DNA of 64,000 bases from Phoenix dactylifera (Eukaryota > Streptophyta > Magnoliopsida > Arecales > Arecaceae): positions 18,501 through 82,500 of the forward strand of contig NW_024068280.1 in the NCBI RefSeq assembly GCF_009389715.1. The letters are read 5' to 3'. A program made the translations under genes and the position numbers. How positions within the stretch are numbered: position 1 is the first letter of the stretch; every line of letters begins with the position of its first letter. Positions 2,300-31,572 of this stretch are shown here, piece by piece. The notes beneath the pieces were generated by a model, which saw nothing but the letters and a program-made list of their open reading frames with translations, was not told the DNA's origin and did no database searches.

Positions 2300-5200
2300 A
2301 GTTTTAAAAGGACTCTTTGTTTTTTTTTTTCTTGGTGGGGAGGTCTGAAGAATGTGAGGGCCATTGCTAACTTTTCTCATGACTGTAATTGGTGCTTTCA
2401 AACTTGGAACATTGTCTTCCTTTAATGGGAGAGGAAGTAGGTGAGATGAACGTCGGCAGTGTGAGAAGGTCAGTTTGGAGTCTTGGACTCATCTGAAACA
2501 TTGCTATGGCTGGCTAGCTGCCAACCAAGGGTTTTCATGCCACTGTCAACCTAAAACAAGATGACGTATGAGTTGGGTAGCCCAAGGGAAGCCACGAGGC
2601 AGTTTGAGTTGGCTGGAATTCTGAAGAGTTGAAAGTGGACTAGGCTCTTTTCTTTTTGGGTCTCCTTGGTTAAAACACATGGAATATGCTTGTGAAACAA
2701 TACTTATTTCTAAATCCTGATGTATTAATGATGGAAAAGAGGAAATCTACCTGTCCAGGCCCAATTTGATGGCTACCCCCCCAATTCCCCCCCCCCCCCC
2801 CCCCCCCGCGGTCATGCCATTTATACTTAGCAACCTGAGTCTTTGGTTGTGCATCATTTGAGCCTGAATGATTATAGGGTACGTGAATCTCTCTCTCATT
2901 TTCTCTAAAAAAGAATTTTATATTATTTAACATGAATTGTGTCGATGGACCCCAAACATTTTATAGATAATTTTGCTATTAAATCAAAATAAAATTTTAT
3001 TTTTAATTAAGAAATAGTTCTGCTCTTCTGTACCTCATATATTTGGAAAGAGCGAAACGTTAATTGCAAATCCAAATAAGGGTGAGAACAAAATTAGAGA
3101 ACTCTCTTGTACAAAAGTGAAAACACATAGAGCACTGCTACTCGTAGCACCACTCTAATCCCCGAACCATTCTTGTGATGGCCTGTTCCGCTCGACCAGC
3201 CTGATCCGAACTTGGACCAACCCAAGCTCACATAAAAAAAAGGTAAAATAGAGAGGAAGATGGGAGTCTTCTTCTTTGTTCAACCCCAGGTGGGAGTCGA
3301 CTGCCAAGAGCCAAGGTAACATTGTGATCTTCGTTCTCTTCCCTTTTTCTTCTTTCCATGTCTTGGAATCATGGTCGTCGGCCGAAAAATTGGCCAGAAA
3401 TTGCTCGAAAAAAAGGATCCCTTGCTTTTCTCTATTTTGCCTTCTTTTCCCCTTTTTCGACGACCGCCGCAGTTGACACTCGTCGTCGAAAGTCTTGGCC
3501 TCTCCCCTATGTCGACCTTTGGCCGATGCCAAAGCCCCTAGCCGCCGAGAAGTGGATTGCGACCCAAGATCGATCGAGCCATAACCTCTTGTTCGACTCT
3601 ATTTTTGGGATGATTCCAACCGACCACCTGCTGCCGCCTGTTGATCGCCGTTGCCGCTTGCTGCTACTTCACCGGACCGTGACCACGGCGGCCACCATCC
3701 CACCTCTCTTCCTCCCCTATTTACCGAGAAAGAAAGAAGGATAGAAGAAGAGAAGAAGAAGAAGAAGAGAGAGTCACCCCTCTCTTGTTTTTCTCACTTC
3801 CTTCTCTCTCATCTCCCTATTTCTCTCTCCAAGAAGACCTATGGATCCACGAATCGTGTCCCATCGATTTAATCTATAAATCTGAGTTGATCCCTGAAAA
3901 GAGACCCTAAACTATCCTAGTGCCCGAGTCGCCTACTGGACCAATTACCCCGGCCCTATTGAATGTCCCTAAAACTCGCTTGTTGATTGATCTTAGCCTG
4001 ATTGAGTCCAATTCATTGAAAGAATCGTCTAGATCTGATCTTTTTTTTATCATTTTATTAAAATTATCAATTAAAAATTAATTTTGTTGTTAATATTTTA
4101 AATAGGTCTAGCGGAGCCATCTAGCGAAGTTTGACGGTCTAAGACGAAAGAGGTAAATAGACCTTACACTCCTTATTATTTTTTAAATAATCATTTCGTG
4201 CTAAAATTTGCTTGTGAAAAATCATGCTTTTCTTAGAATTATGGATCATCATATGTGTTATAAAAATTATGCCTTATTATGAAAAATAGTTCTATAAATA
4301 TTTTAATGAAAATAGTTTTGTTATGAAATATGAATTTGATCGTGCCATTTAGTATTTTTTATCTATTTATATGTATGTTTTGTAAAAAAGAAGAAGTTTT
4401 CTAAAGGCTTTCAGATAGCTATGTATAATCTCTAGAACGGAGAAAATCGACGCCAGGAGCTAGTATCCATACGAACACAGGCCCCACTAGTAGATATAAA
4501 GTTGGCATACGAAACATAAATCTATATTGATTACGAATATGGGCCCTGTCACGAGTATAAGGTTACCGTAGCATGAATATCTGTGAGCAATATTTGAACT
4601 TTGATATGACTAAATGGCAAAAGAACAACTTATGTATTTATATGAAAATATACTTGGAACTATGTTTATGAAATATAAATGATTTATGCACGCATGATTT
4701 GCTTTATAACTTATTTTATTATATTGTATTATGAAATGTGTATTTTGTAATATCTGTTATTTTTTTAAAATAATTTATTGACATGTAAAAACTTATGTTT
4801 GATTTGGTTAGGTAGTGAAAGATTTACTTACTGAGCTGTGTCGCTCATATACCTCTATTTTCTTCTCTCTCCAAACGAATAAGGTCGATAAGAACAAAGA
4901 ATGGTCCATGCCTACAGTTTTAATAGCAAGCTTGGTGATCTATCATAGCATAGTAGAACTTTAGTTTTTCAATTGATTATGAAATTGTAGTTTGTGATTT
5001 TCTGAATAGAAAGGATTATGGGTTTGGTATTTATGTTTGGATTTGGATGCTCTGAACCAATATTGGTTTTATCTAATGGATGATAAAATTAGACTTTTAA
5101 TTATTATATTTTGTTTGTAATAGATTTGAAAGCTAAATATAATATTGGTTTCGTATTATCGTGAGCCGTACTCCTCAATAACACGATCATGTCATGCTCT

Positions 5201-5593
5201 GGATATGGGGCACGACCATTCTACCCCCTTCTAAGCACCAATCCCCACGTCATTGGTGCAGCATTTGGCCATGCTGGGTGCAATTCAAGAAGCACGACCA
5301 TACAGCCAATCGCTGAATCCCACATTCCAGTGGGGAATAGGGTGGTGAACCTTCTTTTTTTCCAAAGCACAGCGTATTGTACCAGGTTTGGGTTATGTTT
5401 TATCCTACAGAAATCTTGACCTGAAGTGATCTTCTGGGACAGAACATGCAGTACATCGTCCTCTTCGGCCAGGACTTGATTGACCCGTGCCCTCGACCAA
5501 ATGCATCACGTTTTCTAGTTGTATTGACATCCAAACTTCAATCAATCAATTATAGGATCAGCTATAAGCTTAGGCACACAAAAGTTCATGAAA
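2300..5593 (+). repeat. Duplicated block, copy A
   Basis: From AGTTTTAAAAGGACTC (2300) to about 5593 the sequence aligns by eye, in the same orientation, with 22340-31572. Shared landmarks include GGTGGGGAGGTCTGAAGAAT (about 2335 and 22378), AAACACATGG (near 2673 and 28345), the whole solo LTR, and the terminal GGATCAGCTATAAGCTTAGG (near 5552 and 31530). Copy A lacks the LINE found in copy B and carries a run of about 20 C at 2788-2807 where copy B has a short G-rich tract. Copy B lacks about 21 bases found near 2366-2386 of copy A. No gene is recognised. The block sits just upstream of the RID3-like gene in copy B, so it may be part of an ancestral duplicated gene neighbourhood. Confidence 0.85.
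3174..5217 (+). mobile_element. Solo LTR (Tekay/del-like), copy A
   Basis: The element begins TGTGATGGCC and ends GGATATGGGGCACGACC. It is flanked by the direct repeat ATTCT at 3169-3173 and 5218-5222, the expected 5 bp target duplication of an LTR retrotransposon. No internal region, primer site or second LTR exists, so the full element was lost by LTR-LTR recombination. The body contains a GA-rich microsatellite (about 3725-3775) and the motif TACTGAGCTGTGTCGCTCAT near 4830, common in chromovirus LTRs. The last two bases are CC instead of the CA seen in copy B, consistent with decay. The same insertion with the same flanks occurs at 29049-31183. Confidence 0.8.
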
Positions 5594-6050: not shown

Positions 6051-6055
6051 CAGTG

Positions 6056-6803
6056 TGTTACGGGGGAACTCAGCCACCATGCCCCACGTGACCGACACGC
6101 GCGCCCAAGAAGACTACAGCTGCCCCTTGATCCAGTAACCCGACCCCGAGTCGGATATCTTCGGCTTCGCAGCCCGACCCCGAGTCGGCTGCCCCTTGAT
6201 CCAGTAACCCGACCCCGAGTCGGATATCTTCGGCTTCGCAGCCCGACCCCGAGTCGGCTGCCCCTTGATCCAGCAATCCGACCCCGAGTCGGCAATCTCT
6301 CGACAACGACAGGCTGTTACCCTGAAGCACGCCACGACCCTCTGCTCCACTACTCCCTGCAACGGTCGTATCCGGCGCTGCTCCACGATCTCCTGTGACA
6401 GCCGTACAAGGCGGAGCTCCACTACGCCCTGTCACGGCCGTACCCAGCGCTGCCCCACGACGCCCTGTAACGGCCATGTCAGTGGCAACTCCATCGTGCC
6501 ACACGATGACCATCCCCCCCGAAGGACCCCCCAGCCTGGTATATATGCTGCAGGGGGGAGAAGGGGGGAGGTAAGCAAGAACTTCCAGTGCATTCTCCTA
6601 CTACCTGCAATTACCTCTCCTTCTCCTCCAATCTCCTCTGACTTGATCGTCGGAGGGCCCCCACGACCCCAGTGGTGGTGCGAGGCTTGCTTGCAGGTTC
6701 TCCGGTAGAAAGTGGAGCGTAATCAACACCAATCAAGGCGACTCAGACGGAACCCCGTTCACACCGCTGTGCCAATCGTTCTCGGTTTGGACCACCAGCA
6801 ACA
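6056..6803 (+). repeat. 5' LTR of the Tat element
   Basis: 748 bp, TG...CA. It contains two full copies and one partial copy of a 69 bp unit starting TGCCCCTTGATCC at 6121, 6190 and 6259. Each unit carries two CCCGACCCCGAGTCGG words, themselves near-palindromic (CCGACCCCGAGTCGG). The promoter TATA element is at 6540-6546, followed by a G-rich tract (GGGGGGAGAAGGGGGGAG) directly abutting GTAAGC. That leaves a possible splice donor in the transcribed leader, which I cannot confirm. Confidence 0.95.
6540..6546 (+). promoter_or_regulatory. TATA box of the Tat 5' LTR promoter
   Basis: TATATAT in the context CCTGGTATATATGCTGC, about 260 bases before the LTR end. The same element is at 18396-18402 in the 3' LTR. 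Placement within an LTR upstream of the R region fits an RNA polymerase II promoter driving the sense gag-pol transcript. Confidence 0.6.
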
Positions 6804-6805
6804 GT

Positions 6806-6823
6806 TGGCGCTAGAGGAAGGGA
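6806..6823 (+). other. Primer binding site of the Tat element
   Basis: TGGCGCTAGAGGAAGG starts two bases after the 5' LTR end (6803). A TGG start complementary to a tRNA CCA end at this spacing is the normal primer site. The specific tRNA was not identified. Confidence 0.75.
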
Positions 6824-6843
6824 CGAATCTCAGAGCGATCGTA

Positions 6844-9355
6844 ATGGCACGGCGAGGTGGTCGTGGAGCTTCCAATGCCTCCGGTCGCGGGGCCTCTCGC
6901 GCCTCCGGCCGGGAGGCCGCTGCGTCTCCAACACATTCTCAGCAACACTCCACCGTTCCACCCCCCATTCAGATGGTCGAAGCCGCTCAGTTCGACCAGT
7001 TAGCCTAGCAGGTTCGCACCCTCGCGGAGGCAGTGCAGAACCTGCAGGGTGTGATGTCTCGGGCGCCGCAGCGGGCCCAGGAGCCGCTGCTCCCTGAGCG
7101 CTCACCTGTCCTCCTCAACCCGCGCTCCTTCCTCTCCCATGGGGAGGAGCGCCGGCGCGAAGAAGACTCTCGAGCACGGTCCATTCTGCCGGGACCTTCC
7201 CATCGGAGCTGCGCGGGGTACGAGAGGCGGGCCCGGGCGCGTTCCCAGACCCCCCAGTCCTCAAGGAACCCGCGCTCCAGTCGGTCCCCCTCTCGGTGCT
7301 CCTTGTCTCCCACCCATCGGTCGCGCTCTCTGGACCGGCGGGTGGACGATCTCCACTGACAACTCCAGGTCCTGAAGGGCCACTCCAAAGATTCCTTCGC
7401 CGACTTGGAGATCTCCTCCCAGCCGGCGCTTGCCTCGAGGATCCTGCGGACCCCGAAACCGCCGGGGTTTAAAATGCCGGCGATCGAGCCCTATGACGGG
7501 GCGGCGGACCCGCGAGATCACGTCGAGAGTTTCAGGACTCTTATGCTCCTCCACGGAGCATCAGATCCTCTCCTCTGCAAGGCCTTCCCAGCGACCCTCC
7601 GTGGCCCGGCAAGGGCGTGGTTCGCCGGCTTGGAGGCTAACTCAATCCAGTCCTTCGACCAGTTTACTCGCCTCTTCATCACCCATTTCGCCGTCAGTAG
7701 TCGGCGGCGACTGGTCTCCGACTCCCTCTTCGATATCCGGCAAAACGAGGGAGAAAGCTTGCGGGATTATCTTACCCGCTTCAACAAGGCTACGCTGGAA
7801 GTTCGGAACCTGAGCCAGGAGGTGGCTCTTTCAGCCCTGAAGCGTGGCTTCCGAAAGGGCAGACTCACCTTCTCCCTGGACAAACGCCTGCCGCGGAGCT
7901 TCCCGGAGCTGTTGTCCCGGGCGAACCAGTATGCGGACGCCGAGGAGGCGGCCGCCCACCGGAGCAAGGAGGCCGCCGAGATCCCTCCAAAGCTCGGGAA
8001 GAAAAGGCGAAAAGAGGCACGCCAGAGGAGGAGCCCGACGCCTCAACGTCGGCGCAGAAGCCTGTCGCCGGCGAGGAACCACGGCGCCCTACGCCCTCGT
8101 TCTCCGCCCCGACGTTTCAACCGGTACACTCCTCTCCTGACTCCCCGGACCCAGATCCTCATGGAAATCAAGGGGCGGGAGGACCTCCCGGTCCCGAGAC
8201 AGATGAAGAAGATCCCTGGGAGGAGGCCCTCTCGGGCGTACTGTGAGTACTACCGAGACCACGGCCACGACACCGAAGACTGCTTCCAGCTTCGGGACGA
8301 GATCGAGGCTCTCATCCGCCGAGGGCGTCTCGGTCGATACGTGAACGATCGACGTCCCCCCGCAGACTCGCGTCCGGCCGACCCGGCCCCTCCGGAGCCT
8401 CTGGAGCAGAATCGACCCGTCGCGGGCGTGATCCATACTATCACTGGGGGCTGCCCCCGGCCCGAGAGGAACGCAGGGGGCTCGACTGAAGCATCAGGGG
8501 CAGCCGTCGCAAAGAGGCAGAGGGTCGGTAATGTAATCACTTTTTGTGATGAAGATGTAAAGGGGGTTCAGACCCCCCACGACGACGCCATGGTGATCTC
8601 CCTCACTATGGCAAACTATGATGTAAGGCGTGTTCTTGTGGATAGTGGAAGCTCAGCTGATATTTTGTTTTACGAGGCCTTCCAAAAGATGAGCTTGTCC
8701 AGACAATTGTTGCACAAAACATCCACCCCCCTCATAGGATTCACTGGAGACGCTGTCTCGGCCGAAGGTGTCGTTGAGCTGCCTGTGACTGCGGGCGTTG
8801 CACCCGCAGAAGCCACGGTGCGGCTCGGGTTCTTGGTCGTCCGTGTTCCCTCGGCCTACAACGCTATCCTCGGACGACCCGGACTGAACGCCTTTCGCGC
8901 GGTGGTCTCAACGTACCACTTGCTCATGCGGTTCCCCACGGCGGCCGGGATTGGAGAGGTCCGAGGTGACCAACCGACCGCAAGGCAATGTTTCCTAGCA
9001 ACTCTCAAAGGGAAGAAGCCCGTAGAAGCCTTAAGCGTCGAGTCCCTCGACGCCAGAGACGAGGTGGCCTTGCGGCACGGGAAGCCGGCCGAAGGTGTGA
9101 TCGAAGTTCCCCTCGAGGAAGGTCGCCCGGACCGGACGGTCCGGGTCGGCACCAATCTCGACCCGGGAGCTCGGGCTCGGTTGGTGGAATTCCTCCGAGC
9201 CAACGCCGATGTATTTGCCTGGTCGGCGGCCGATGTACCTGGGATCAACCCGGAGGTCATTTCTCACGCCCTCAATATCGACCCAACCCACCGACCAGTA
9301 AAGCAGAAGAAGAGACACTGTGCCCCGGATCGGATCCGAGTGGTCGACCAGGAGG
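6844..9355 (+). pseudogene. Tat gag-protease frame, interrupted
   Basis: One reading frame runs from ATG 6844 to about 9352 with two in-frame stops, TAG at 7006-7008 and TGA at 7357-7359. After the second stop it is open to 9384. Gag signatures follow: a capsid-like region (about 7460-7950; PYDGAADPRDH, WFAGLEANSIQSF, RFNKAT), an arginine-serine-rich linker, and a zinc-knuckle-like CEYYRDHGHDTEDC near 8240. The retropepsin active site VDSGSSADIL lies near 8640, with the flap-distal ILGRPGLNAF near 8870. The frame loses register with pol near 9352, where reverse transcriptase continues one frame away. The protein would have formed virus-like particles and cleaved the polyprotein. The two nonsense codons lie in the N-terminal third, so an internal start at 7405 would still give capsid and protease. 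Confidence 0.9.
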
Positions 9356-12311
9356 AGACAAGCTCTTGGAGGCAGGATTCATAAGGGAGGTCAGCTACCC
9401 CGAATGGCTGGCAAATGTCGTACTTGTCCGGAAGGCGAGCGGAAAGTGGAGGATGTGCGTCGACTACACCGACCTGAACAAGGCATGCCCCAAGGATAGC
9501 TTTCCGCTTCCGCGGATAGACCAACTGGTCGACGCGACTTCCGGATATCAGCTGCTGTCTTTCATGGACGCCTTCTCCGGCTACAACCAGATAATGATGG
9601 CTCCACAGGACGAGGAGAAAACTGCCTTTATAACAGACCGGGGGCTGTACTGTTACAAGGTAATGCCCTTCGGTCTGAAGAATGCTGGCGCCACTTACCA
9701 GCGCCTCGTCAACAAAATCTTCAAAGAGCAAATCGGCCGGAACATGGAGGTGTACGTGGACGATATGCTGGTGAAGAGCCGCCATGCAGACCAGCACATC
9801 GCGGATCTGGAGGAGACTTTCGCCACCTTGCGGAAGTTTTGCATGAAGCTGAACCCAGCGAAGTGCGCCTTTGGCGCTTCGGCCGGGAGGTTCCTCGGTT
9901 TCATTGTCAACCAGCGGGGGATCGAAGCCAACCCGGACAAAATCAAGGCCATCCAAGATATGTCCCCTCCGACCAAAGTGAAGGAGGTTCAGGAGCTCGC
10001 TGGGAGGGTCGCCGCGCTCGGACGATTTGTGGCAAAATCGGCCGAACGCTGCCAACCTTTCTTCAAGGTGTTGAAACGCCCGAAAGACTTCCTCTGGACG
10101 GCCGAATGTCAAGCAGCATTCGACCAGCTCAAGGAATACTTGGCGTCTCCTCCCCTGCTGTCCAAGCCGCAAGAAGGGGAGATGCTCTACCTCTATCTGG
10201 CGGTCTCCCCAACCGCAGTCAGTGCGGTACTGGTTCGGGAAGAGGCAAAGCTCCAGAAGCCTGTGTACTACATCAGCCGGGTCCTACGGGATGCCGAGAC
10301 GCGGTATACGAAGGCTGAAAAGATCGCCTTCGCGCTGCTGACCGCGACCAGGAGGCTTCGCCCCTATTTCCAGGCCCATTCTGTCACCCTCTTGACCGAT
10401 CAACCGCTGCGGCAGATCCTCAGCAATCCTGAGAATGCGGGACGGCTGGTGAAGTGGGCAGTAGAACTTGGTGAGTTCGACATCCGCTACCAGCCCCGAC
10501 CCGCCATCAAGGCCCAGGCGCTCGCGGATTTCCTCGCTGAGTGCACGGTGCAGGAGGCGGAACCTAGGTCGCCGGAAACACCCAGCCTCGACCTCCCGAT
10601 TTGGACGCTTCACATCGATGGGTCGTCGAACCCCGAAGGTGGAGGGGCCGGGCTGGTCCTCACCAGCCCTGATGGAGTGATAGCCGAGTATGCCTTGAGG
10701 TTCGGATTTCCAGTGACCAACAACGAGGCGGAGTATGAGGCCCTAGTCACGGGACTCAAACTCACCAAGGAGCTCGGCATCCGGCGCCTGAAGGTCTTCA
10801 CCGACTCCCAGCTGGTGGTCGGGCAGGTCCGTGGGGAGTTCGAAGCCCGGAACCCGACCATGCAGAATTACGTCCGGAAGGTGCAAGCACTCATTCCCGA
10901 CCTCGGCAGTGTCGACATCCAGCAGGTCCCAAGAAGTGAAAATGCCAGGGCCGACAGGCTGTCCCGCTTAGTGAGCGCAGACGCGCACAACTTGTCGAGG
11001 GCGATCTACCTGGAGACCCTGGATGCCCCGAGCATCGGCGAGGCTGGAGCGGTGATGGTGATTGATCCGGAGCCGTCTTGGATGGACCCGCTTGTCACCT
11101 ACCTCGCCGAAGGGATCCTCCCTGAAGACGAAGATCAAGCTCGGCGACTTGTTATGAAGTCCGCCCACTACGTAGTCAATGAAGGGAGGCTGTATAGGAC
11201 CTCGTTCACCGCCCCCCTCTTAAAGTGCCTCCGCCCCTCGGAAGCGGCCTACGTCCTCGGCGAAGTCCACGAAGGCGTTTGCGGATCCCACTTGAGGGCT
11301 AGGTCCTTGGCGCACAAGATCATGAGGCAAGGCTATTATTGGCCTACCTTGTTGGAGGACTCAAAGGATCATGTACGGAAATACGACGCCTGCCAGCGCC
11401 ACGCCAACGTCCAGAGAGTCCCTTCTGTCCCCTTGGCACCAATCACTGCACCCTGGCCCTTCGCCCAGTGGGGAATGGATATCCTCGGACCATTCCCCGT
11501 CGCTTCAGCTCAGCGGAAATTTTTGATTGTTGCAATCGACTACTTCACCAAGTGGGTGGAGGCAGAGCCGCTGGCCATTATCACGGAGGTGCAAGTCCGG
11601 AAGTTCGTGAAGAAGAACATCATTGTCCGATTTGGGGTACCTCGGGTCCTCATCTCGGATAATGGCCGACAGTTCGACAACAAGCATTTCCGTGACTTCT
11701 GCGAGGAGTTCGGGATCGAGCATCGGTTCACATCTGTGTCGCATCCCCAAACCAACGGCGAGGCCGAGGTCACAAATCGGACAATCCTCCAAGGAATCAA
11801 AGCGCGAATCGGTCGGACGGGGCAAGCTTGGGTCGAAGAACTCGAGAATGTCCTTTGGGCGTATCGGACCACGCATCGGACCCCTACCGGGGAGACGCCT
11901 TTCAGCCTAACCTATGGCACGGAAGCCGTTGTCCCCGTGGAGCTCGGACTCCCCTCACCTCGGGTGGCCGCGCACCGACCCGAGGCCAATTCGGAGCAAC
12001 TCCGAGGGAACCTGGATCTCTTGGAAGAAGCGAGGGAAATGGCGCAGGTTCGGATGGCGATGTATCAGCGGAGGGTGGCCCGATATTACAACTCCAAGGT
12101 CCGACCGAAGCTTTTCAGAATCGGAGATCTGGTGCTAAGGCGAGCTAAAGCATCTCAACCTGCGGAAGGTGGGAAGCTAGCGCCAAATTGGGAAGGCCCG
12201 TATAAGGTTCGCTGGGTAAACCGACCTGGCTCCTACCAGTTGGAGGCCCTAGATGGTCGAGAAATTCCAAGGAGCTGGAATTCCGCTAACCTGCGGATGT
12301 ATTACCAGTAG
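9353..12311 (+). pseudogene. Tat pol: RT, RNase H, archaeal-type RNase H, integrase
   Basis: This frame is open from before 9353 to the TAG at 12309-12311, but it is out of register with the gag-protease frame by one base. Reverse transcriptase: WRMCVDYTDLNKACP near 9448, YVDDMLVKS at about 9753. First RNase H: about 10180-10540, ending ALADFLAE. Second RNase H: from WTLHIDGSSNPEGGG (about 10606) through FTDSQLVVGQV and ENARADRLSRL; this second copy defines Tat. Integrase: zinc-binding segment 11270-11400, catalytic core with D near 11478, SDNGRQFD near 11655 and GEAEVTNRT near 11758. The zinc segment has Tyr (codon 11382-11384) where the HHCC motif needs its first Cys. With the frame break, this points to a non-autonomous copy. 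Confidence 0.92.
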
Positions 12312-13470
12312 AACGACGATGCCAGAAAGACAGTTCAAAAATATATAACACTTTGCATTTCAATAATTTCTGGTTACAACGGCGTGCTCGTGTGATTACA
12401 AGGAATTCCCAGAGGGGAATTAGGGTGTAAAGAAAGTAAAGAAGAGGTGGAGACTCCGAGGAGCTGAAGATCTGGGATCCCGAAACCTTCATCTGAAGCG
12501 GTTGCAATCCCGCCGGAAGTAGGTGCTTCCAACCGGAGGCGCCATCGGCGTCTCACGAAAGAGACGAAGAGCCGGCGCGGATGAAGAAGAAGTGGACGAA
12601 GGAGAAGTCCACACTGCCTCCAACCGGAGGCGCCATCCACGCCCCACGAAGAGGACGAGGAGCCGCCGCAGACGAAGCTCCCGCTGCCTCCAGGGGAACG
12701 CCACCTCCAAGGGATATTCCGGTCCTCCCCAGTGTTAGGGGAGAGAAGGAATACAAGGGGGAAGAGCATATGGAGGCGCGGTCCCGGATCAAGCACCTGG
12801 TGCGGAGCTCAATCGGGAGGCCGAACTTCAAGGAGGGGAGACGTGATCCCGGATGAAACGCCTAGAGCGGAGTTCCGCCGGGGAGAACCTCCTTGTTGAT
12901 CCCAGATGAAACGGCTAGTTGGCGGAAGTCGCGAAGGGCGCGCCTCCCGTTCCTTCGGCAGGGGTCTCTCAACCATGCGCCGGAGAGGAGGCCCACGATC
13001 CATGGCAACCTGAACAGCTCCGGCTTGGCAGGCTCCATCGCACCTGCACCTATATTTATAGCCAAACTGCGGCCCCCCGGTCGTTCCGATACGGGTGGCT
13101 CCAATAAATGCGGGCGCATTGAATCCGGAGCCGATCCGGCTCTCGAGGCGTATCTTCCCGCGATTTCCTAAGCGTCATTCTCCTTAATCGCATTTTTTGT
13201 GCAGGACACTCCGGGTGGCCTGTACCCCTAGGTCCACGTATCTCCGCTCGCGCCCCAGGCCGCATCCGCCTCGAAGAACGCGCGTATCGCGGCCGCTTAA
13301 CTGACACTCCTCGCAAGCAGCAACTGGCGATCCGATTTCCCAGGTAACCCCTTAATTAGCACTTAATGCCCATCTGGTGTTCCCCAGGCGACGCTTGGAG
13401 AGGAGGAGAAATACAATCGCAGCTGGCCATGGAGAAATCCCGTCGGGCGGCAAGCGACAGGCGCACGACC
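12312..13470. other. Non-coding spacer between Tat pol and the tandem arrays
   Basis: GC-rich sequence after the pol stop. It holds imperfect repeats: CTGCCTCCAACCGGAGGCGCCAT and relatives near 12527 and 12614, and diverged copies of GATCCCGGATGAAACG near 12785, 12847 and 12900. CCTCCAACCGGAGG is itself an inverted repeat. Near 12340-12390 the minus strand reads like the 3' UTR of a second antisense transcript (compare 14850-14900), but no convincing ORF accompanies it. No domain was recognised. Confidence 0.5.
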
Positions 13471-14084
13471 AGCGAGCGGAATTTCCCGAGGCTCGGCCCT
13501 CGGATGCCAGGCTAACCCGATGATCATCCCGGGAGCAGACTAGCCTGAAGCCCCGACCGGTCGCCTCGGCTTGCGCCAGCCTTGGCCGACCAACGAGCGG
13601 AATTTCCCGAGGCTCGGCCCTCGGATGCCAGGCTAACCCGATGATCATCCCGGGAGCAGACTAGCCTGAAGCCCCGACCGGTCGCCTCGGCTTGCGCCAG
13701 CCTTGGCCGACCAACGAGCGGAATTTCCCGAGGCTCGGCCCTCGGATGCCAGGCTAACCCGATGATCATCCCGGGAGCAGACTAGCCTGAAGCCTCGACC
13801 GGTCGCCTCGGCTTGCGCCAGCTTTGGCCGACCAACGAGCGGAATTTTCCGAGGCTCGGCCCTCGGATGCCAGGCTAACCCGATGATCATCCCGGGAGCA
13901 GACTAGCCTGAAGCCCCGACCGGTCGCCTCGGCTTGCGCCAGCCTTGGCCGACCAACGAGCGGAATCTCCCGAGGCTCGGCCCTCGGATGCCAGGCTAAC
14001 CCGATGATCATCCCGGGAGCAGACTAGCCTGAAGCCCCGACTGGTCGCCTCGGCTTGCGCCAGCCTTGGCCGACCAACGAGCGG
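13471..14084 (+). repeat. 121 bp tandem array, about five units
   Basis: The anchor AATTTCCCGAGGCTCGGCCC recurs at 13480, 13601, 13722, 13843, 13964 and (changed) 14085, each step exactly 121 bases. Units differ by only a few substitutions. Minus-strand frames of 81 codons through the array are a by-product of the unit being nearly a multiple of three with few stops; each unit shifts the frame by one base. The array sits between the convergent pol and antisense genes. Confidence 0.97.
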
Positions 14085-14790
14085 AATTTCCTGAGGCCTA
14101 ACCCTCGGATGCCTGGCTTAGCGCCGGAAGAATTTCCTGAGGCCTAACCCTCGGATGCCTGGCTTAGCGCCGGAAGAATTTCTTGAGGCCTAATCCTCGG
14201 ATGCCTGGCTTAGCGCCGGAAGAATTTCCTGAGGCCTAACCCTCGGATGCCTGGCTTAGCGCCGGAAGAATTTTCTGAGGCCTAACCCTCGGATGCCTGG
14301 CTTAGCGCCGGAAGAATTTCCTGAGGCCTAACCCTCGGATGCCTGGCTTGGCGCCGGAAGAATTTCCTGAGGCCTAACCCTCGGATGCCTGGCTTGGCGC
14401 CGGAAGAATTTCCTGAGGCCTAACCCTCGGATGCCTGGCTTGGCGCCGGAAGAATTTCCTGAGGCCTAACCCTCGGATGCCTGGCTTGGCGCCGGAAGAA
14501 TTTCCTGAGGCCTAACCCTCGGATGCCTGGCTTGGCGCCGGAAGAATTTCCTGAGGCCTAACCCTCGGATGCCTGGCTTGGCGCCGGAAGAATTTTCTGA
14601 GGCCTAACCCTCGGATGCCTGGCTTGGCGCCGGAAGAATTTCCTGAGGCCTAACCCTCGGATGCCTGGCTTAGCGCCGGAAGAATTTCCTGAGGCCAAAC
14701 CCTCGGATGCCTGGCTTGGCGCCGGAAGAATTTCCTGAGGCCTAACCCTCGGATGCCTGGCCTAGCGCCGGAAGAATTTCCTGAGCCGGG
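14085..14790 (+). repeat. 46 bp tandem array, fifteen units
   Basis: The anchor AATTTCCTGAGG recurs every 46 bases from 14085 (14131, 14177, ...) to 14775, exactly fifteen steps. The unit reads AATTTCCTGAGGCCTAACCC, then TCGGATGCCTGGCTTAGCGCCGGAAG. It resembles the first 46 bases of the adjacent 121 bp unit (AATTTCCCGAGGCTCGGCCC, then TCGGATGCCAGGCTAACCCG), so it probably arose by amplification of a truncated 121 bp unit. A TTAGCG/TTGGCG variant is clustered: TTAGCG in the first units, TTGGCG in the middle. Confidence 0.97.
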
Positions 14791-14941
14791 AGTCAGCGAG
14801 ACGCTACCAAGAGTTAAAAAGAAGAAGGACGAAAGTGAAATGGAGAAACTCTATTTGCATTAACTTTCATTGTTTCAGGGCTGAGACCCATACAACTTGG
14901 CAAAACGCCAACACACAAAGAAAAGAACAAAATACAGAAGG

Positions 14942-17309
14942 TCAGCTTGGAGGAACCCCCGGGTCGAGAACGTCGGGCACGTCCGTAGGGGGTAGGGAGA
15001 CGGTTGGAGAAGCAGCAGGCAATGGCGCCGGAGGGGAGTCGAGAAGGGAGATCCCACTTAGGTCAATTTCGGGGTACTTAGCCGACACCCTTGCCAGGCC
15101 TTCCTCGAAGCCTAAGACAAAGGAGTCGGACCCCGCGTCCGACATATCACGGACGAACTCGTCGGACTGACGATAGGCCTGTACCGCCTCCGACATATCA
15201 CGGGTGAACTCGGCGGACTGACGATAAGCCTGTACCGCCTGACGCCCGATCTCCGCACTCTTCTCGGCCAGCGTCGCCTCTGCCCGCTCCATAATCTGAG
15301 CCTTCGCCTCCAAGACCTTCGCCACAATCCGGTCATCCGCCTCGGAGGAGACCCTCAGCAGATCAGCCTGAGCCTCCTTGTGCTTCGCCTCGGCAGCAAT
15401 GCGAGCAGCCTCAGCCTCCTCCAGGCGCGAATGAAGCTCCTGGTCGCTCGCGCGGAACTTCTCCAAGGCCGACTCCAATTCGCCCAGCTTGGCTTCAAGA
15501 GACCGGGTTCGGTTGCGGGCGTTGTCGGCTGACCGCTGGGCCTTCTCCCACCTCTCCCGGTAGTCGGCAGCCTTCCGGGACTGCTTCTCGGCCCGCTCCT
15601 CCGCCTTCTTGATCTCGCCCTCGAGACCCGAGGCAACCTTGAGCTGCTCCCGAGCCTCCAACAGTTGCTTCTCGAGGGTGGCGAAGCCGAGTGCCCGCTC
15701 TTCGGCCACCTGGAGCCTCGTCTCGAGGTCCCTGGTCGTCCTCCCCGCCGCAGCCTGACCTCCCTCCTCTACAGCCTTCAGTTGGCTCTCGGCCCTCGCC
15801 AGAAGCCTCGCCTGTTCCTCGTAGCACTCCTCCAGGCGGACCATGTACTGGGCGAGCTAAGAGATGGAAAAACGAGGGCGTCAGGTGGGGATCAACAGAG
15901 CCTATAAATGAGGAAAGTGACCAAAAGAGCACTCACCGACATGAGACAGACGCAGCTGGCAGCCCCAACGTCAGGGACCCTCATCTCCCGGACCCGCCTG
16001 CGGTCCTTCTCCAGCAGCACCGTCTCGATGAGGTTTCGGGCGCCGGCGAAAGTGAAGGCCGACCCCGACTTCTCCCCGGAGTCGGACGGTGGTTCTGCAG
16101 CCTTACCCTTACCCATCGCTTGGGGAAGAGTCATGCTGACCATGTTCGGGGCGGGGACCGCCCCTGGAATTGACAGGGTCCCGCTCGGCCGGGGCCTCGG
16201 CGCGTCCCTCCTCGTATCATCCGGAGCCGACCGAGTCGAAGGCTGGGCTGGGGACCGATCACGTCCGACCCGTCCATCTCGGGCGCGCCCGGGTGATGCC
16301 TCCGGAGAAACGGTAGTCTCGGCATCAGAGGGCTGATACAGCGTCAACTCCCGGTCCGCGCCCGCGGCGTCCCCCTGATCGGTGGGTCCGGACCCGTCTG
16401 TCGGCGTCGGAGTCGCCTGCCGGCAGGACTTCTTCGCCGGTGGGGCCCCGCTCGGAGGAGCTCGTTTCTTCCTCCGGACTGCTTCCAGTAGGGATGTCCT
16501 ACCAACAGCCGTTGCCTTGTCCGACCGCATGACGTCGTCGATCTCTGCAAAAAGGACGAGGTGGTCGGAGGTTGAGAAATTGAAGGAAAGAACGAGACGA
16601 AAGAAGAGAAAAGAGCTAAAAAAGAAATGGTGGCGGGCTCACGGTCAGCGGGGACCGAGCTCAGACCGACGTTCACCAAGGTATCCTCGGAAATAAGGCG
16701 AGCCACCGGGGGGAGCCGGCCCTCGGCAACCAACTCCTTCAAGACGGCAACGCCATCGGATTCCTCCCTCGACAACCTCGATAGGCCAATCGGGGACTTC
16801 ATCGGCGTCTCCCAGGTTGCCCTGATTCCCCAAGAGGGATCTGCGTCAACGAAAAAGAAGCGCTCCTTCCAGCCGTGAATGGAGGTAGGAGCCTCCTTGA
16901 CGAGGCCGCACCCTCGCCGCGCCGCAAAGCACCACCACCCTTTATCCTGGGGGTGGCCGCTCAGGCCGTAGCATTCCCAAAAGACATTCAGGGTGGCGGG
17001 AACCTCGTGCATGCGGCAGAGAACCTGAAAGGCCGTCAGGGCGCGCCATGAGTTCGGCACCAGTTGCGTCGGCGCCACTCTTAAACCCCGAAGCACCTGA
17101 ACGACTAAGTCCGAGGGGGGAAAGCGGAACCCGGCCTGAAGAATGCCCTCATTGATGGCAACCTTCCCTGGAGGAGGATGGGACATCCTCTCCTCAGGCC
17201 CCGGGAGTGTAACATTGCAGGCCTCGGGAAGGTGGTATCGAGCCACGAACCTATCTAGGTCTTCGGCGACCAACTCCGACTTAATGCGGTCTGCTCTCAC
17301 TTCGTCCAT
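14942..17309 (-). CDS. Spliced antisense gene of the Tat element (gypsy-type antisense ORF protein, three exons)
   Basis: Proposed exons on the minus strand: 17309-16643, 16544-15937 and 15856-14942. Introns have canonical ends (GTGAGCC...TTTGCAG and GTGAGTG...CTCTTAG), and phases match: 667 nt leaves one base that pairs with a 608 nt exon, and the third exon is in phase 0. Together they give 2190 nt, about 729 codons plus stop, with no interruption. The N-terminal ~220 residues (MDEVRADRIKSEL; YHLPEACNVTLPGP; FPPSDLVVQVLRGL; WWCFAARRG) resemble the family Pfam names Transposase_28 (putative gypsy-type). The middle is basic and proline-rich (RRKKRAPPSG). The C-terminal exon is a long predicted coiled coil (about residues 430-600), then a Pro-rich tail. 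Function is unknown. It converges with pol across the arrays. The intact spliced frame contrasts with the broken gag-pol, which suggests either selection or chance in a young copy. Confidence 0.8.
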
Positions 17310-17827
17310 CCCTAATGGCCAGTGAATCTACGGTCAGGACAGGGTCAAGAAGGGGGAAAGGACCGGAACGACTGGAGTACACTAATACAAAAGGAGAGTA
17401 TGGAGAGCCCTAAATTAAAGAATGGGGCAACTCACCGGAAGAGAAGGAAGAACGGCTCCGAGAGCGTCAAAGGAGGAGCAAGCAAACAGTCCGACGGCGA
17501 TGACGGCAGCGCAAAGGAGAAACTCGAAGATGTCTGTAAAGAGAAAGGCGGACGGAGGAGGACCCCCGGTTAAATAGGCGGAAAGGTGGGTGACGCCCCG
17601 GTGACGCCAGAGGATGTCTGGCTGCCGAAGGGTCGCTCGCGCCCCAAAGGCGAATCGACGCCATTAAGGAAGGATGTCCGCCGAAATCCTCAGACTGCCA
17701 GGTCAGCAACAACCGCCATACGCTATAAAGAAGACGGGGAGCTCGAAGCGCGCGCGCCTCTCCGAGGGATGGCGGCAATCTCGAAGCATCACTTCCTTCA
17801 CCCGTTCCCCTTCTGGTTCCAGGCTCG
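17310..17827 (-). promoter_or_regulatory. Leader/promoter region upstream of the antisense gene
   Basis: No ORF of its own. Read on the minus strand, a TATTTAA element occurs near 17568-17575 (context CGCCTATTTAACCGG), about 260 bases upstream of the ATG at 17309, a plausible promoter for the antisense transcript. The plus strand also has GCTATAAAG near 17722. Which, if either, is used cannot be told from sequence. Confidence 0.4.
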
Positions 17828-17842
17828 GAAGTGGGGGGCTAC
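17828..17842 (+). other. Polypurine tract of the Tat element
   Basis: GAAGTGGGGGGCTAC directly abuts the 3' LTR start (17843). A purine-rich tract here primes plus-strand DNA synthesis in LTR retrotransposons. Confidence 0.85.
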
Positions 17843-18659
17843 TGTTACGGGGGAACTCAGCCACCATGCCCCACGTGACCGACACGCGCGCCCAAGAAGA
17901 CTACAGCTGCCCCTTGATCCAGTAACCCGACCCCGAGTCGGATATCTTCGGCTTCGCAGCCCGACCCCGAGTTGGCTGCCCCTTGATCCAGTAACCCGAC
18001 CCCGAGTCGGATATCTTCGGCTTCGCAGCCCGACCCCGAGTCGGCTGCCCCTTGATCCAGTAACCCGACCCCGAGTCGGATATCTTCGGCTTCGCAGCCC
18101 GACCCCGAGTCGGCTGCCCCTTGATCCAGCAATCCGACCCCGAGTCGGCAATCTCTCGACAACGACAGGCTGTTCCCCTGAAGCACGCCACGACCCTCTG
18201 CTCCACTACTCCCTGCAACAGTCGTATCCGGCGCTGCTCCACGATCTCCTGTGACAGCCGTACAAGGCGGAGCTCCACTACGCCCTGTCACGGCCGTACC
18301 CAGCGCTGCCCCACGACGCCCTGTAACGGCCATGTCAGTGGCAACTCCATCGTGCCACACGATGACCAACCCCCCCGAAGGACCCCCCAGCCTGGTATAT
18401 ATGCTGCGGGGGGGAGAAGGGGGGAGGTAAGCAAGAACTTCCAGTGCATTCTCCTACTACCTGCAATTACCTCTCCTTCTCCTCCAATCTCCTCTGACTT
18501 GATCGTCGGAGGGCCCCCACTACCCCAGTGGTGGTGCGAGGCTTGCTTGCAGGTTCTCCGGTGGAAAGTGGAGCGTAATCAACACCAACCAAGGCGACTC
18601 AGACGGAACCCCGTTCACACCGCTGTGCCAATCGTTCTCGGTTTGGACCACCAGCAACA
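17843..18659 (+). repeat. 3' LTR of the Tat element
   Basis: 817 bp, same ends as the 5' LTR and a TATA element at 18396-18402. It has three full 69 bp units plus a partial one (starts at 17908, 17977, 18046, 18115), one more than the 5' LTR, and that accounts exactly for the 69 bp length difference. About eight substitutions separate the two LTRs outside that unit (by-eye count). Confidence 0.95.
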
Positions 18660-18664
18660 CAGTG

Positions 18665-20935: not shown

Positions 20936-22165
20936 TTACGTAAAGTAGTCCGTCTTGTTGGCTTCCTCTTTACCATTCTCTCTCTTGGCTTCTTTGAGAA
21001 GGAGACCCAAGAGCCTCTTGTAGATGTCTATCACAGCCTCAAGCTTGTCAATGGCCCTACTCCTGTCCTTCACTGCTACACTCAAGCATTCATCCACATC
21101 TCTCAGCTCATTAACATTTCTACCCATCTCCCTCTCACAAAACCGCCCATTGGACACGACTTCATCTCCCTTTCGAGCTCCATTGATCGCATTGATCCCT
21201 TTCACCACTATAAGATCGCTAAGGGCACCCCCCGCAAGTCCAATAATCCGAACCACCGATGTGCTCTCTACATCCCAAATCCTTATGATCCCATCTTCGG
21301 AAGCTGATATCAAGTTCTGATGCCCGTGTGCCATTGCCACTGCCATCACTGCTCCATTCCGCTCTGATTCCCATGCTGTAACCTCTGCTCCAGCATCTCG
21401 TAGCTTTCTTCCTCCTACTCTTAGTGGTACAACATATATCCTCCCATCTGATCCACCAGCATAGAACTCAGAACTAGTAGGATCCACAGCAACACACCAA
21501 ATTGCGCACAGGAATTGCACAGTTCGCAGCTTGACACCATCTGCCAGGCTCCAAAGCTTACAAGTGCAATCAAGCGAGCTTGAAACTACAGTAGCATTGC
21601 ATCCGCCTGGCCCTGCAGCGATGCCTGTCACCGACGAGCCATGCGCAGAGAATTGGTTCAATGCAAGTTGGGCAGGATCCTCTTCATTGGAGGCATCATC
21701 TAGAAGTCGAAGGATTGGGAATATTGCTATGGTGCCATCATCACCGCCCGATATTAGTAGAGAGCCATCGTCGTTGACGACGAGACACGACACAGCCTGG
21801 CGGTGTGCCCGAAACGAGCGGCACAGATCACCGGAGGGAAGAGAGAAGGCATGGATGCAGCCAGAGAGGCCCCCAGAGAAAAGGTAGGAGCCGTCTGGAG
21901 TCGCAGCAAGGGGAGCTACTGGTTCGGGGGCTTGGATGCAGTGGAGAGCGGCGGAGGACCACCAGTTGTAGAGCCTAATAAAGCCTGCAGCAGCGGCTGA
22001 AATGTGCGAGGCGGCAATGAGGGTGTTGCCAGCGAGGGCGAGCCCTTTGCGAGGGGGGCGGCTGCCGGAGAAGTGGGCAAGCAGGGTGCCGGTGAGAGGG
22101 TCGTGGGCTGTGATGGGCTTGTCGGGGGAGCTAGTGAGGATGACCTCTCTCCAGAAGGATGCCAT
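20936..22165 (-). CDS. RID3: RID3-like WD40-repeat protein (WDR18/Ipi3 family)
   Basis: Single-exon ORF of 409 residues with ATG at 22165. It begins MASFWREVILTSSPDKPITA, followed by DPLTGTLLAHFSGSR. WD40-type blades are visible: LFSGGLSGCIHAFSLPSGD, LISGGDDGTIAIFPI, VVSSSLDCTCKLWSLADG, FYAGGSDGRIYVVPL and LISASEDGIIRIWDVES. A C-terminal helical, charged tail follows (about 345-405: DECLSVAVKDRSRAIDKLEA). This arrangement matches plant ROOT INITIATION DEFECTIVE 3, related to Ipi3/WDR18, a subunit of the Rix1-type 60S ribosome maturation complex. RID3 in Arabidopsis acts in callus and root-meristem development. Length is close to the family norm and there are no interruptions, so it is likely functional. 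It converges with ALKBH2. Alternative: another single-exon WD40 protein of the same subfamily. Confidence 0.85.
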   Translation of the reverse strand: MASFWREVILTSSPDKPITAHDPLTGTLLAHFSGSRPPRKGLALAGNTLIAASHISAAAAGFIRLYNWWSSAALHCIQAPEPVAPLAATPDGSYLFSGGLSGCIHAFSLPSGDLCRSFRAHRQAVSCLVVNDDGSLLISGGDDGTIAIFPILRLLDDASNEEDPAQLALNQFSAHGSSVTGIAAGPGGCNATVVSSSLDCTCKLWSLADGVKLRTVQFLCAIWCVAVDPTSSEFYAGGSDGRIYVVPLRVGGRKLRDAGAEVTAWESERNGAVMAVAMAHGHQNLISASEDGIIRIWDVESTSVVRIIGLAGGALSDLIVVKGINAINGARKGDEVVSNGRFCEREMGRNVNELRDVDECLSVAVKDRSRAIDKLEAVIDIYKRLLGLLLKEAKRENGKEEANKTDYFT

Positions 22166-22720: not shown

Positions 22721-25700
22721 TCATATAACTCTAACGTGAGTACAACCTGCTAAATCGCGAGAAAGTAAAAAGAGCAAAGAAGGAGGAACGTCATAATCAG
22801 ACGTCCAGGTAAAATCACCGGAGTGCCGGGCAACATAAGAGGCGACCCAGTCTGCGACCCTGTTCGCCTCCCTGAACACATGTCCTATCTGAACATCGTG
22901 CATCAACCGCACCATCCTCCGAGCCTCCCGAATAAGGGGATGGCCATCCCCGAACCGATCCGCCCCTCGAAGCCAGTTGACAACCACAGATGAGTCTCCC
23001 TCAAGACAGATCCGCTCCACACCAAGTACTCGCCACACATAGGATAATTCCTCCCAAGCCGCCCGCAGCTCTGCTCCAACCACTGTGAGTCCAGGCGTGC
23101 GTCGTCCTCCTACTGCTATCATCCTGCCAAGGTGGTCCCTAACCACAAAACCAACCCCTCCAGCCACACCATCCACTGACCGACTGCCGTCGAAGTTTAT
23201 TTTGAGATAGCCAATGGGTGGGGGTACCCAGGAAACAAGGGCAAAACGGGGCGCTGAAGCAGCGTGGAGAGTACCCCAGATGTCCCTGACTATCCCAGAA
23301 GAAAACCGCATAGTAGCCGCAAAAACCTCCCTCGCAGATAGCGTCGCTCTATCCACCACCCTCCTCGGGGACGACCTCCTCCCCTCAAATAGTCTGGCAT
23401 TCCTATCCAACCAAATGTGATAGGACAGGTATGCCACCAAAATCCCTACCTCCACAGATCGGGGGCTCGACATGGATGCTCTCACCATCTGTATCATATC
23501 CTGCGCAGAAACTATCGAGTCGGGTAGTAGGATCGGTGATCTCCTCCATATCTCTCTGGCTCTGGGACAGTGCAAGATAACATGCTCGATCGTCTCCTCA
23601 CTATCTGCACACTCCTCACAGCACTGAGAGACCGCCATGCCACGCGAGGCTAACAGACTCCTCGTAGGAAGGCAGCCCCAGGCCACCTTCCAGATGAATA
23701 AAGCCACTCGCGGGTGAATCCGCAATCTCCATATCCAGCCACCCTCAATCTGACGAGCCGGCTCCCTACCGAGCAGTGCACGGAGATCTCTGACACGCAC
23801 TCGCGTCCGTCCCGTCGGACCCCATACTAGCCTGTCGCCCCCCCCGTCGATGGGAACCGGAAGAGACAAAACCGACTCCGCCAGCTGCTCCCCAAAGACC
23901 TCCCGGACCATCTCCTCCCTCCATCGGGCCCCCTCTGATGTCAGCAGCTCGCTAACCCTGCAGCCATCTAAACTCGTCAAATCAACCATAGTCGGCATGC
24001 GACAGATCGGTATCTCGGTCACCCAGCTATCCTCCAGCACATCAATAGACCGACCATCGCCTATGATCCATCTAATCTCTGGAAGTACCACCCCTGCTCG
24101 AGTACAAATCTCCCTCCAAATCGGAGAATGGTGACGACCAGCTCGCATCCCAGGAACCAAGGCACCATATTTGGCCCTCATCAGCGAGGACCACATACCC
24201 TCTGGCTCAAGCACAAGTCTAACTGCATGTCTGGCAATCAGTGCCTCCCGTGTCGCCACTAGGGACTGCACCCCCAAACCTCCATAGCTAGCCGGCTGGC
24301 ACACAACATCCCAGGACAATAAATGGATACCCCCCTGCCACTGCATCTCCCCCAAATAAAGTTCCTGAACAGTTGCTCAAGAGACCTCAGGACTGTAACT
24401 GGAATGAGAGTATTGGAAAGTAGAAAGATAGGAACCGAGGTAAGAACTGAGCGAACCAGAGTGATCCTACCCATCATCGAGAGTGTATGCATCTGCCACC
24501 CCTCTAGTCTCCGTCTGATGCTGAGCTCCATAGCTGTACAATCCCTCCGCCGCAACCGCTGACCGTAGAGTGGGACCCCTAGATATGTCATCATGCCCAC
24601 CTGCTCTCCCACCCCCAGGGTCTCCACTATAGACCGCCTCACTGCCACTTTGGTCTTTGGGCTGAAAATAATAGATGACTTGGTCAAATTGACCCGCTGT
24701 CCTGATGCTGCACAATAGTCCCGAATAATCCCACAGATGATCCAGGCCGTCTGCACCGACGACCTGACCAAGAGCAAACAGTCATCAGCAAACAACAAAT
24801 GGGAAATCGGAAGAGCTCTCACCACCGGTCTATAAACCTCCAACTCCTGAGAAGCCACTGCCCGTCGTAGTGCTCTAGACAGTGCATCTGAGCACATGAT
24901 GAACAATAGGGGGGAGAGGGGGCAGCCCTGACGCAACCCCCCTGCCGACACAAAAAATCGGGATGGCGTCCCGTTCACCAGGATAGCAAAGGAAGGGACA
25001 CACACACAGCCCATCACCCACCTGATCCACGTCTCAGGAAATCCAAACCTCCGCAAGGACTGCTGCAAGAAATCCCATCTCACCCTATCATAGGCCCTCT
25101 CCATATCTAGCTTGATCCCCATCAAACTCCTCCTCACCGGAGCCCTACCAAGATCGAACATGAACTCCTGGGCAATAAGTACATTGTCAGAGATACTCCG
25201 CCCCTCCAGAAAGGCCCCCTGCTCTGGGCTAATAAGCCTAGGAAGAACACACCGCAATCGGACCGCAAGGATCTTCGCCGTCGCCTTGTACATGGTCGTA
25301 CAAAGGCTAATCGGACGAAAGTGACTCGGCTCCGTGGCATCCTGCCGCTTCGGTATCAAGGTAATGAAAGTCCTCTGCCACTCTGATGTCATCACAGCTG
25401 TGCTGAAAAACTGCTGTATAGCCGCCGTCACATCTCGACCCACTATCATCCAATATCTCTGAAAAAATAAGGGTGGAAAGCCATCCGGCCCTGGAGCCTT
25501 GTCCCCCGTGAGGGACCTCACTGCCTCTCTGATCTCCACCTTCGAAACTGGTCTAGTCAATTCTGCTGTCTCCTCCTCTGATACCCCTACCTCAGGCGAA
25601 AGGATATCCACTATGCTCCCACCTGTAGGCTGCTCTGTCCACCTAGCCCTGAAAAAACTCTCCATAACCCTCTGAATCCTCTCCGGATCCTCCGACAGCT

Positions 25701-31183: not shown

Positions 31184-31572
31184 ATTCTACTGCCTTCTAA
31201 GCACCAAACCCGAAGTCATTGGTGCGGCATTCGGCCACCCAGGGACCAGGGTGCAGTTCAAGAAGTGCTGCCACACAGCCAACCGCTGAATCCCACATTC
31301 CAGTGGGGAATAGGGTGGCGAAGCTTTTTTTTCTCTCTTTCCAAAGCACAACGTATTGTACCAGGTTTGGGTTAATATTTTATCATACAGAAATCTTGAC
31401 CTAAAGTGATCTTCTGGGACCGAACATTACATCGTCCTCTTCGGCCGGGCCTTGCTTGACCCGTGCCCTCCACCAAATGCATCACGTTTTCTAGTTGTAT
31501 TGACATCCAAACTTCAATCAATCAATTATAGGATCAGCTATAAGCTTAGGCACACAAAAAGTTCATGAAGGA

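What the first reader, a model, noticed from the sequence alone, without database searches (positions are those of the whole stretch)
14942..17309. Intact three-exon antisense gene in a young Tat retrotransposon whose own gag-pol is broken
Seen: minus-strand exons 17309-16643, 16544-15937 and 15856-14942 join in phase with GT-AG introns to about 729 codons without a stop, while the sense gag-pol has two stops, a frame break and a changed integrase zinc residue. Known: some Tat elements carry antisense ORFs, and Pfam names a putative gypsy-type family for such proteins. Inference: the antisense product may be expressed and kept for a role (regulation of the element, trans-complementation, or assembly through its coiled coil) that is not established. 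The combination of a conserved N domain, a basic middle and a long coiled coil in three exons is worth a dedicated look.
Basis: partly seen in the sequence, partly recalled or inferred. Interest (0 to 1): 0.8.

Follow-up and report, generated by a model that had tools for sequence, protein, structure and literature searches.

The report
Spliced antisense gene in palm retrotransposon
A jumping gene in what looks like the date palm genome carries, on its opposite strand, a second gene cut into three pieces by two introns; related copies show that this gene and its splice sites have been kept by natural selection, so it probably makes a real helper protein for the element.

Summary
In detail: three minus-strand exons (17309-16643, 16544-15937, 15856-14942) join through GT-AG introns of 98 and 80 nt into 729 codons plus stop, inside an LTR element (6056-18659, target-site duplication CAGTG, LTRs differing at 7 of 748 sites) whose gag frame has two stops. 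Open length alone is modest evidence here (1 of 500 shuffles does as well). Related copies decide it. In 39 sister copies plus the window, ATG and all splice dinucleotides are intact (40 of 40). A distant subfamily, 34-38% identical in exon 1, has both introns at the same place and phase, a matching ATG (24 of 24), a TATA box 248-282 nt upstream (21 of 24), and dN/dS of 0.18, 0.23 and 0.13 in exons 1-3; shifted frames give above 1. So it is a protein-coding gene, spliced by inference; no RNA was seen. Antisense Transposase_28 ORFs are a published hallmark of Retand elements (PMC11963269), but that survey counted single ORFs and never mentions introns. 'Antisense intact, gag-pol broken' means little: in the same eight elements RT is under stronger constraint than this gene. 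Function is inferred: a nuclear, oligomeric, DNA-binding accessory or regulatory protein.

The parts
6056..6803 (+). 5' LTR (748 bp, TGTTA...CAACA), preceded by target-site duplication CAGTG at 6051-6055
   Evidence: self-comparison
6804..12311 (+). gag-pol region: gag-frame stops at 7006 and 7357, change of frame within 8988-9382, Tyr at 11382 in the integrase zinc finger
13466..14785 (.). two tandem arrays (spacing 121 bp and 46 bp) between pol and the antisense gene
16643..17309 (-). exon 1 of the antisense gene, 222 codons + 1 nt, holds Transposase_28 (PF04195) at residues 54-115
16545..16642 (-). intron 1, 98 nt, GT-AG, phase 1; same place and phase in the distant subfamily
15937..16544 (-). 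exon 2, begins with a basic cluster (RRKKR...AKK); no Pfam match
15857..15936 (-). intron 2, 80 nt, GT-AG, phase 0; same phase in the distant subfamily
14942..15856 (-). exon 3, long heptad-rich stretch and a conserved C-terminal motif ending ...PEIDLSGI
17570..17578 (-). CCTATTTAA, TATA-like box; TATTTAA starts 267 nt before the ATG; invariant in the 39 aligned sequences
17328..17435 (-). putative 5'-UTR intron (GTGAGT...TAG); donor hexamer and terminal TAG invariant in 39 sequences; no clear counterpart seen in the distant subfamily
17843..18659 (+). 3' LTR (817 bp, one extra 69-bp unit), followed by CAGTG at 18660-18664

Best explanation
This is a genuine protein-coding accessory gene in three exons, carried by a Retand-type (Tat) Ty3/gypsy element and read against gag-pol from its own TATA promoter between the gene and the 3' LTR. 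Shown by comparison: matching start codon, two introns at fixed place and phase, and protein-level purifying selection in all three exons. Inferred: the mRNA is spliced in the cell; because the introns lie on the strand opposite to the genomic RNA, they are not recognised in that RNA and survive reverse transcription. Inferred with less certainty: the protein enters the nucleus through the basic cluster of exon 2, oligomerises through the exon 3 coiled coil, and its N domain binds DNA or chromatin to regulate the element or guide its nuclear steps; it can act in trans, so that single copies may lose it.
For: ATG and splice dinucleotides intact in 40 of 40 close sequences. Distant subfamily (34-38% identity in exon 1): donor 1 GT 23 of 25, acceptor 1 AG 23 of 25, donor 2 GT 22 of 24, acceptor 2 AG 23 of 24; splice-site identity 0.930 against 0.825 and 0.762 in the rest of the introns; dN/dS 0.184, 0.230, 0.132 over 24 copies (276 pairs), shifted frames 1.11-1.95; 12 non-overlapping pairs give 0.30, 0.43, 0.33, upper 95% limits at most 0.51. 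Exon 3 needs splicing to be read: in 18 of 24 distant copies its frame has a stop within 40 codons upstream and no Met between that stop and the exon, and none of the 24 has a Met in the first 39 codons of the exon. Close family: variants shared by 4 or more copies show dN/dS-like 0.48 against 0.80 for singletons. TATA in 21 of 24 distant copies. The one distant copy followed further has pol on the opposite strand with a tandem array between.
Against: No transcript evidence. In the young family the contrast is marginal: Fisher p 0.04 for variants in 4+ copies, 0.17 for 2+, and by exon 0.83, 0.52 and 0.06; singletons themselves have somewhat more synonymous changes than expected (p 0.03). 13 of 40 close sequences have a broken or truncated frame, and one of three further young copies lacks exons 1-2. 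Most distant copies carry stops or odd-length gaps. Exon 2 of window and distant subfamily is barely alignable (hhalign probability 0.5%), and both have a Met near the start of exon 2 (residue 6 in the window, residue 5 in 23 of 24 distant copies), so a start inside exon 2 is not excluded. No solved structure or second Pfam family resembles the N domain, so DNA binding rests on a published prediction.
Confidence: 0.68

Rival explanations
1. The antisense transcript matters as RNA: it pairs with genomic RNA and feeds or dampens small-RNA silencing; the frame is incidental.
For: The 2.19 kb of coding exons would be complementary to the genomic RNA; the authors of PMC7264820 raise this possibility.
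Against: Selection against amino acid change in the right frame of all three exons, not in the shifted frames, is not expected of a pure RNA function.
Confidence: 0.1
2. A structural role: the coiled-coil protein helps particle assembly or nuclear import of the integration complex rather than regulating transcription.
For: Long heptad region, basic cluster at the start of exon 2 in both subfamilies; a nuclear import role is discussed in PMC7264820.
Against: Own promoter and antisense placement separate its expression from gag-pol; the Grande relative is reported nuclear (PMC7264820). Not excluded here.
Confidence: 0.2
3. Separate, unspliced antisense ORFs (or chance openness in GC-rich DNA), without a joined product.
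For: Shuffled sequence of this composition has long open runs; each exon lies in its own ORF of over 600 nt in the window; exon 2 has a conserved early Met and the window's exon 3 has a Met at its fifth residue.
Against: Splice dinucleotides are better conserved than the rest of the introns, the codon split by intron 1 stays in phase in both subfamilies, and the distant exon 3, the most constrained of the three, has no early Met.
Confidence: 0.05

Closest known systems
Antisense TRP28 (Transposase_28, PF04195) ORFs of Retand-lineage elements (Vicient 2025, PMC11963269; parts 1-3 of 5 read)
   Same: Antisense between pol and 3' LTR, PF04195 domain, tandem arrays in the same region, LTR and internal lengths in the published range; 97% of clusters carry it.
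   Different: Published as single ORFs (600 nt or more, shorter ones only if they hold TRP28); the main text has no word beginning 'intron' or 'coiled'. Here one three-exon gene with conserved introns and measured purifying selection. The separate TRP28 and Smc antisense ORFs of that survey may be exons of such a gene (inference).
gene23 of maize Grande (Gomez-Orte 2013; not held, known through PMC7264820)
   Same: Antisense, transcribed from a promoter upstream of it, nuclear protein.
   Different: Exon structure could not be checked; the paper is not held.
HBZ of HTLV-1 (named in PMC11963269)
   Same: Works-like comparison only: antisense gene of a retroelement making a nuclear protein.
   Different: No homology claimed or tested; the HTLV antisense promoter lies inside the 3' LTR (PMC7264820), here the TATA lies outside it. 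That HBZ is spliced is recalled.

Membership tests
Retand lineage (Tat clade) LTR retrotransposon | RT phylogeny places it with Retand | not tested
   No tree with reference RTs was built.
Retand lineage (Tat clade) LTR retrotransposon | Second RNase H-like domain (aRH of Tat) after the RT-RNase H | tested here: met
   RT_RNaseH at 400-497 and RVT_3 at 544-660 of the pol ORF. A passage of PMC6317226 speaks of a domain described in the Tat lineage, abbreviated aRH there; that RVT_3 stands for it is recalled.
Retand lineage (Tat clade) LTR retrotransposon | LTR 315-1,194 bp, internal region 7,380-12,869 bp, pol-3'LTR region 2,933-6,566 bp | tested here: met
   748/817 bp, 11,039 bp and 5,531 bp; ranges from PMC11963269.
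Retand lineage (Tat clade) LTR retrotransposon | Antisense TRP28 ORF between pol and 3' LTR | tested here: met
   PF04195, 42.9 bits against a cut-off of 26.2, E 5.6e-11.
Potentially recently active Retand element (identical LTRs) | LTRs identical | tested here: not met
   7 of 748 mismatches and a 69-bp unit difference.
Spliced antisense accessory gene | Spliced mRNA observed | not testable with these tools
   No RNA data available.
Spliced antisense accessory gene | Intron position and phase conserved between diverged subfamilies | tested here: met
DNA-binding protein | Similarity to a known DNA-binding fold | tested here: inconclusive

The most novel reading that the evidence does not exclude
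The antisense ORFs catalogued as separate TRP28, Smc-like and other ORFs in Retand elements across flowering plants are exons of one ancestral intron-bearing gene. Such an element would carry an independently promoted, spliced nuclear regulator on its back strand, which can keep introns only because it is antisense: a plant counterpart, in works-like terms, of the antisense regulators of deltaretroviruses.
Probability: 0.5. Interest if true: 0.68.

Novelty: new variant of a known kind. Interest (0 to 1): 0.5.

Why it matters
Antisense TRP28 ORFs are near-universal in recently active Retand elements (97% of clusters, PMC11963269), yet the function of their product is unknown. If the coding unit is a three-exon gene, an ORF-based survey sees fragments of it; the full protein (N domain, basic linker, coiled coil, C-terminal motif) becomes a concrete target for localisation and binding tests, and the introns become a simple marker for its mRNA.

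Tried and rejected
Considered that the intact antisense frame beside broken gag-pol shows preferential retention: rejected by age arithmetic and by RT constraint. Considered that young copies with RT 99-100% identical (40 of 40 scored, of 2,862 candidates) but absent from the top 40 lack the gene: three were looked at. L086 has lost exons 1-2; L085 keeps the region with 20 gap openings in 3.2 kb, more like assembly indels; L087 keeps what was fetched (to 15302) with 3 gap openings. Considered a shared 5'-UTR intron: no clear counterpart in the distant subfamily. Considered recent host-gene capture: the gene is also in a distant subfamily, whose pol is 64.8% identical in the one copy followed, so it is old in these elements. 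The N domain gave no PDB match with exon 1 alone and only two weak ones with the profile (E 1 and 1.1), and no second Pfam family at a convincing score. Paper searches: held no paper; led to PMC11963269 and PMC7264820; of the other papers listed only PMC6317226 was opened on this point (passages). No text on introns in these antisense genes was met; that is not proof that none exists.

Rows dropped. L047 (truncated) from the variant and leader counts (39 of 40 sequences). Of 30 PF04195 loci: L049 (more diverged) and L059, L067 (near-identical to others) before alignment; L062 and L073 (no homologous downstream part) before splice counts; L063 as well before intron-2 counts and dN/dS (24 used). 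Codons with stops or gaps were skipped in dN/dS. The 30 loci are the best-scoring of 150 scored of 3,465 candidates, so exon 1 is biased towards conserved copies; exon 1 outside PF04195 still gives 0.35. For one search, eight elements other than the window were in both top-40 lists; seven were used, the one on C375 (truncated gene) was left out; being chosen by high RT identity they may understate RT divergence.

Full report
WHAT IS THERE. The window lies in a 773 Mb plant assembly of 2,391 contigs. Its contig C1 is 40,814,151 bases long; a paper on the date palm BC4 male assembly gives 772.3 Mb in all and 40.8 Mb for linkage group 1 (PMC6794320, passages), so the source is very probably Phoenix dactylifera. 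The element spans 6056-18659 with CAGTG on both sides; LTRs are 748 and 817 bp and differ at 7 of 748 aligned sites plus one 69-bp unit. With a recalled grass rate of 1.3e-8 this is about 0.4 million years, more under slower palm rates. Pfam finds gag, RT, RNase H, a second RNase H-like domain, integrase zinc and core domains.

THE ANTISENSE GENE. Exons 17309-16643, 16544-15937 and 15856-14942 on the minus strand join to 729 codons and TGA; introns are 98 nt (phase 1) and 80 nt (phase 0), both GT-AG. Residues 54-115 match Transposase_28, PF04195, 42.9 bits. Exon 2 begins with a basic cluster; exon 3 holds a long heptad-rich stretch (heptad contrast 0.485, best of 300 shuffles 0.370; a single Pro in residues 426-690). 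One of 500 shuffles matches the observed open length, so openness alone does not prove a gene.

CLOSE COPIES. The search scored 40 copies, the window among them, of 1,674 first-look candidates; the 39 others were fetched. All 40 sequences keep ATG and the four splice dinucleotides; 27 of 40 keep the whole spliced frame. In 39 of these (L047 left out), singletons show 160 nonsynonymous, 110 synonymous and 8 stop changes against a context-matched expectation of 174, 95 and 9 (synonymous excess p 0.03); variants shared by four or more copies show 26 and 32 with no stop, dN/dS-like 0.48. Fisher for 4+ against singletons gives p 0.04, for 2+ p 0.17; by exon (2+) 0.83, 0.52 and 0.06. This test alone is weak. 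In eight elements with both parts read, dN/dS is 0.27 for RT-RNase H and 0.43, 0.54 and 0.34 for exons 1, 2 and 3; exon 3 has a higher dS (0.046 against about 0.02), which hints at exchange between subfamilies.

DISTANT SUBFAMILY. A PF04195 search of the same genome gave 3,465 candidates, of which 150 were scored, all over the cut-off. The 30 best were fetched as loci. In 29 of 30 the similarity to the window's spliced protein ends at or before residue 223 and in L073 at 231; exon 1 ends at residue 222. Twelve intact exon 1 translations (of 24 examined) are 34-38% identical to the window's. The end of exon 1 lines up with the window's and is followed by a donor. Counting by eye in the printed alignments: donor 1 GT in 23 of 25, acceptor 1 AG in 23 of 25, donor 2 GT in 22 of 24, acceptor 2 AG in 23 of 24. 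Start codon ATG in 24 of 24. A TATA box lies 248-282 nt before it in 21 of 24; in the window TATTTAA starts 267 nt before the ATG and is invariant among 39 sequences.

SELECTION. Over 276 pairs of 24 distant copies NG86 dN/dS is 0.184 in exon 1, 0.230 in exon 2 and 0.132 in the 145 codons of exon 3 used; shifted frames give 1.11 to 1.95. Twelve non-overlapping pairs give 0.297 (0.239-0.377), 0.429 (0.355-0.510) and 0.332 (0.254-0.423); exon 1 outside PF04195 gives 0.346. Splice dinucleotides are more alike (0.930) than the rest of intron 1 (0.825) and intron 2 (0.762). Against a tidy picture: most distant copies carry one or more stops or odd-length gaps, as old copies do.

SPLICED OR SEPARATE. 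In 18 of 24 distant copies the exon 3 frame meets a stop within 40 codons upstream with no Met between it and the exon; in 5 a Met lies between, and in 1 no stop was met; none of the 24 has a Met in the first 39 codons of exon 3. So the constrained start of exon 3 is hard to read without splicing. Exon 2 does have an early Met, at residue 5 in 23 of 24 distant copies and residue 6 in the window, and the window's exon 3 has one at residue 5, so additional starts are possible.

HOMOLOGY ALONG THE LENGTH. The C-terminal motif of exon 3 is shared (15 of 46 residues, E 3e-5 in a two-sequence comparison; hhalign E 2.8e-4, probability 41%). Exon 2 is nearly unalignable (hhalign probability 0.5%), with only the basic start and the end just before intron 2 looking alike. 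One distant copy was followed further: pol lies on the other strand (64.8% identical over residues 114-1107 of the window's pol ORF), with a 117-bp tandem array between. So that copy shares the layout.

WHAT IT DOES. Shown: a protein is selected for, and splice signals are kept. Inferred: own promoter, spliced mRNA, nuclear entry, oligomerisation, DNA or chromatin binding, action in trans. Published support for the inference: Grande gene23 is transcribed antisense from a promoter upstream of it and its protein is nuclear (PMC7264820, parts 1 and 2 of 3 read); the TRP28 domain is predicted to bind DNA (PMC11963269, parts 1-3 of 5 read). That introns survive because the genomic RNA is the other strand follows from the anatomy.

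KNOWN OR NEW. Antisense TRP28 ORFs occur in 97% of Retand clusters (PMC11963269). That survey took ORFs of 600 bp or more, shorter ones only if they hold TRP28, and its main text has no word starting with 'intron' or 'coiled'; its separate antisense TRP28 and Smc ORFs are what a three-exon gene would look like to an ORF finder, as it does in this window. The 2020 review asks for a look at antisense and spliced transcripts. Hence a new variant of a known kind, of moderate interest.

Noticed in passing
window 12320-13460: Stretch between pol and the tandem arrays, 99-100% identical (as printed) in 40 of 40 scored copies of 1,805 candidates, with a minus-strand TATAAATATA at 13060-13051 and a 140-codon minus ORF at 12374-12796 without Pfam match: perhaps a second antisense unit.
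   Followed up: partly
window about 15135-15240: A 17-residue unit (AVQAYRQS.EF.RDMS) stands twice in a row near the end of exon 3; copies L045 and L046 have a 51-bp deletion in exon 3, perhaps of one unit; its place was not checked.
   Followed up: partly
L086 1328-1335: A young copy lost exons 1-2 and part of the leader (15842-17545) by a deletion with 8 bp of overlap at the junction, as expected of illegitimate recombination.
   Followed up: partly
L085: 20 gap openings in 3.2 kb beside 45 mismatches: probably uncorrected long-read indels in some contigs, so single-base frame breaks in this assembly deserve caution.
   Followed up: no
window 3307-5592 and 29260-31569: Two 2.3 kb stretches 85% identical, with a further pair at 2839-3270 and 28719-29148: another repeat family.
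   Followed up: no
window 20936-22165 and 22721-24355: A minus-strand WD40-repeat ORF and, beside it, an ORF with RVT_3 and zf-RVT domains, which looks LINE-derived.
   Followed up: no
L070 528-773: A second partial copy of exon 1 upstream of the full one.
   Followed up: no
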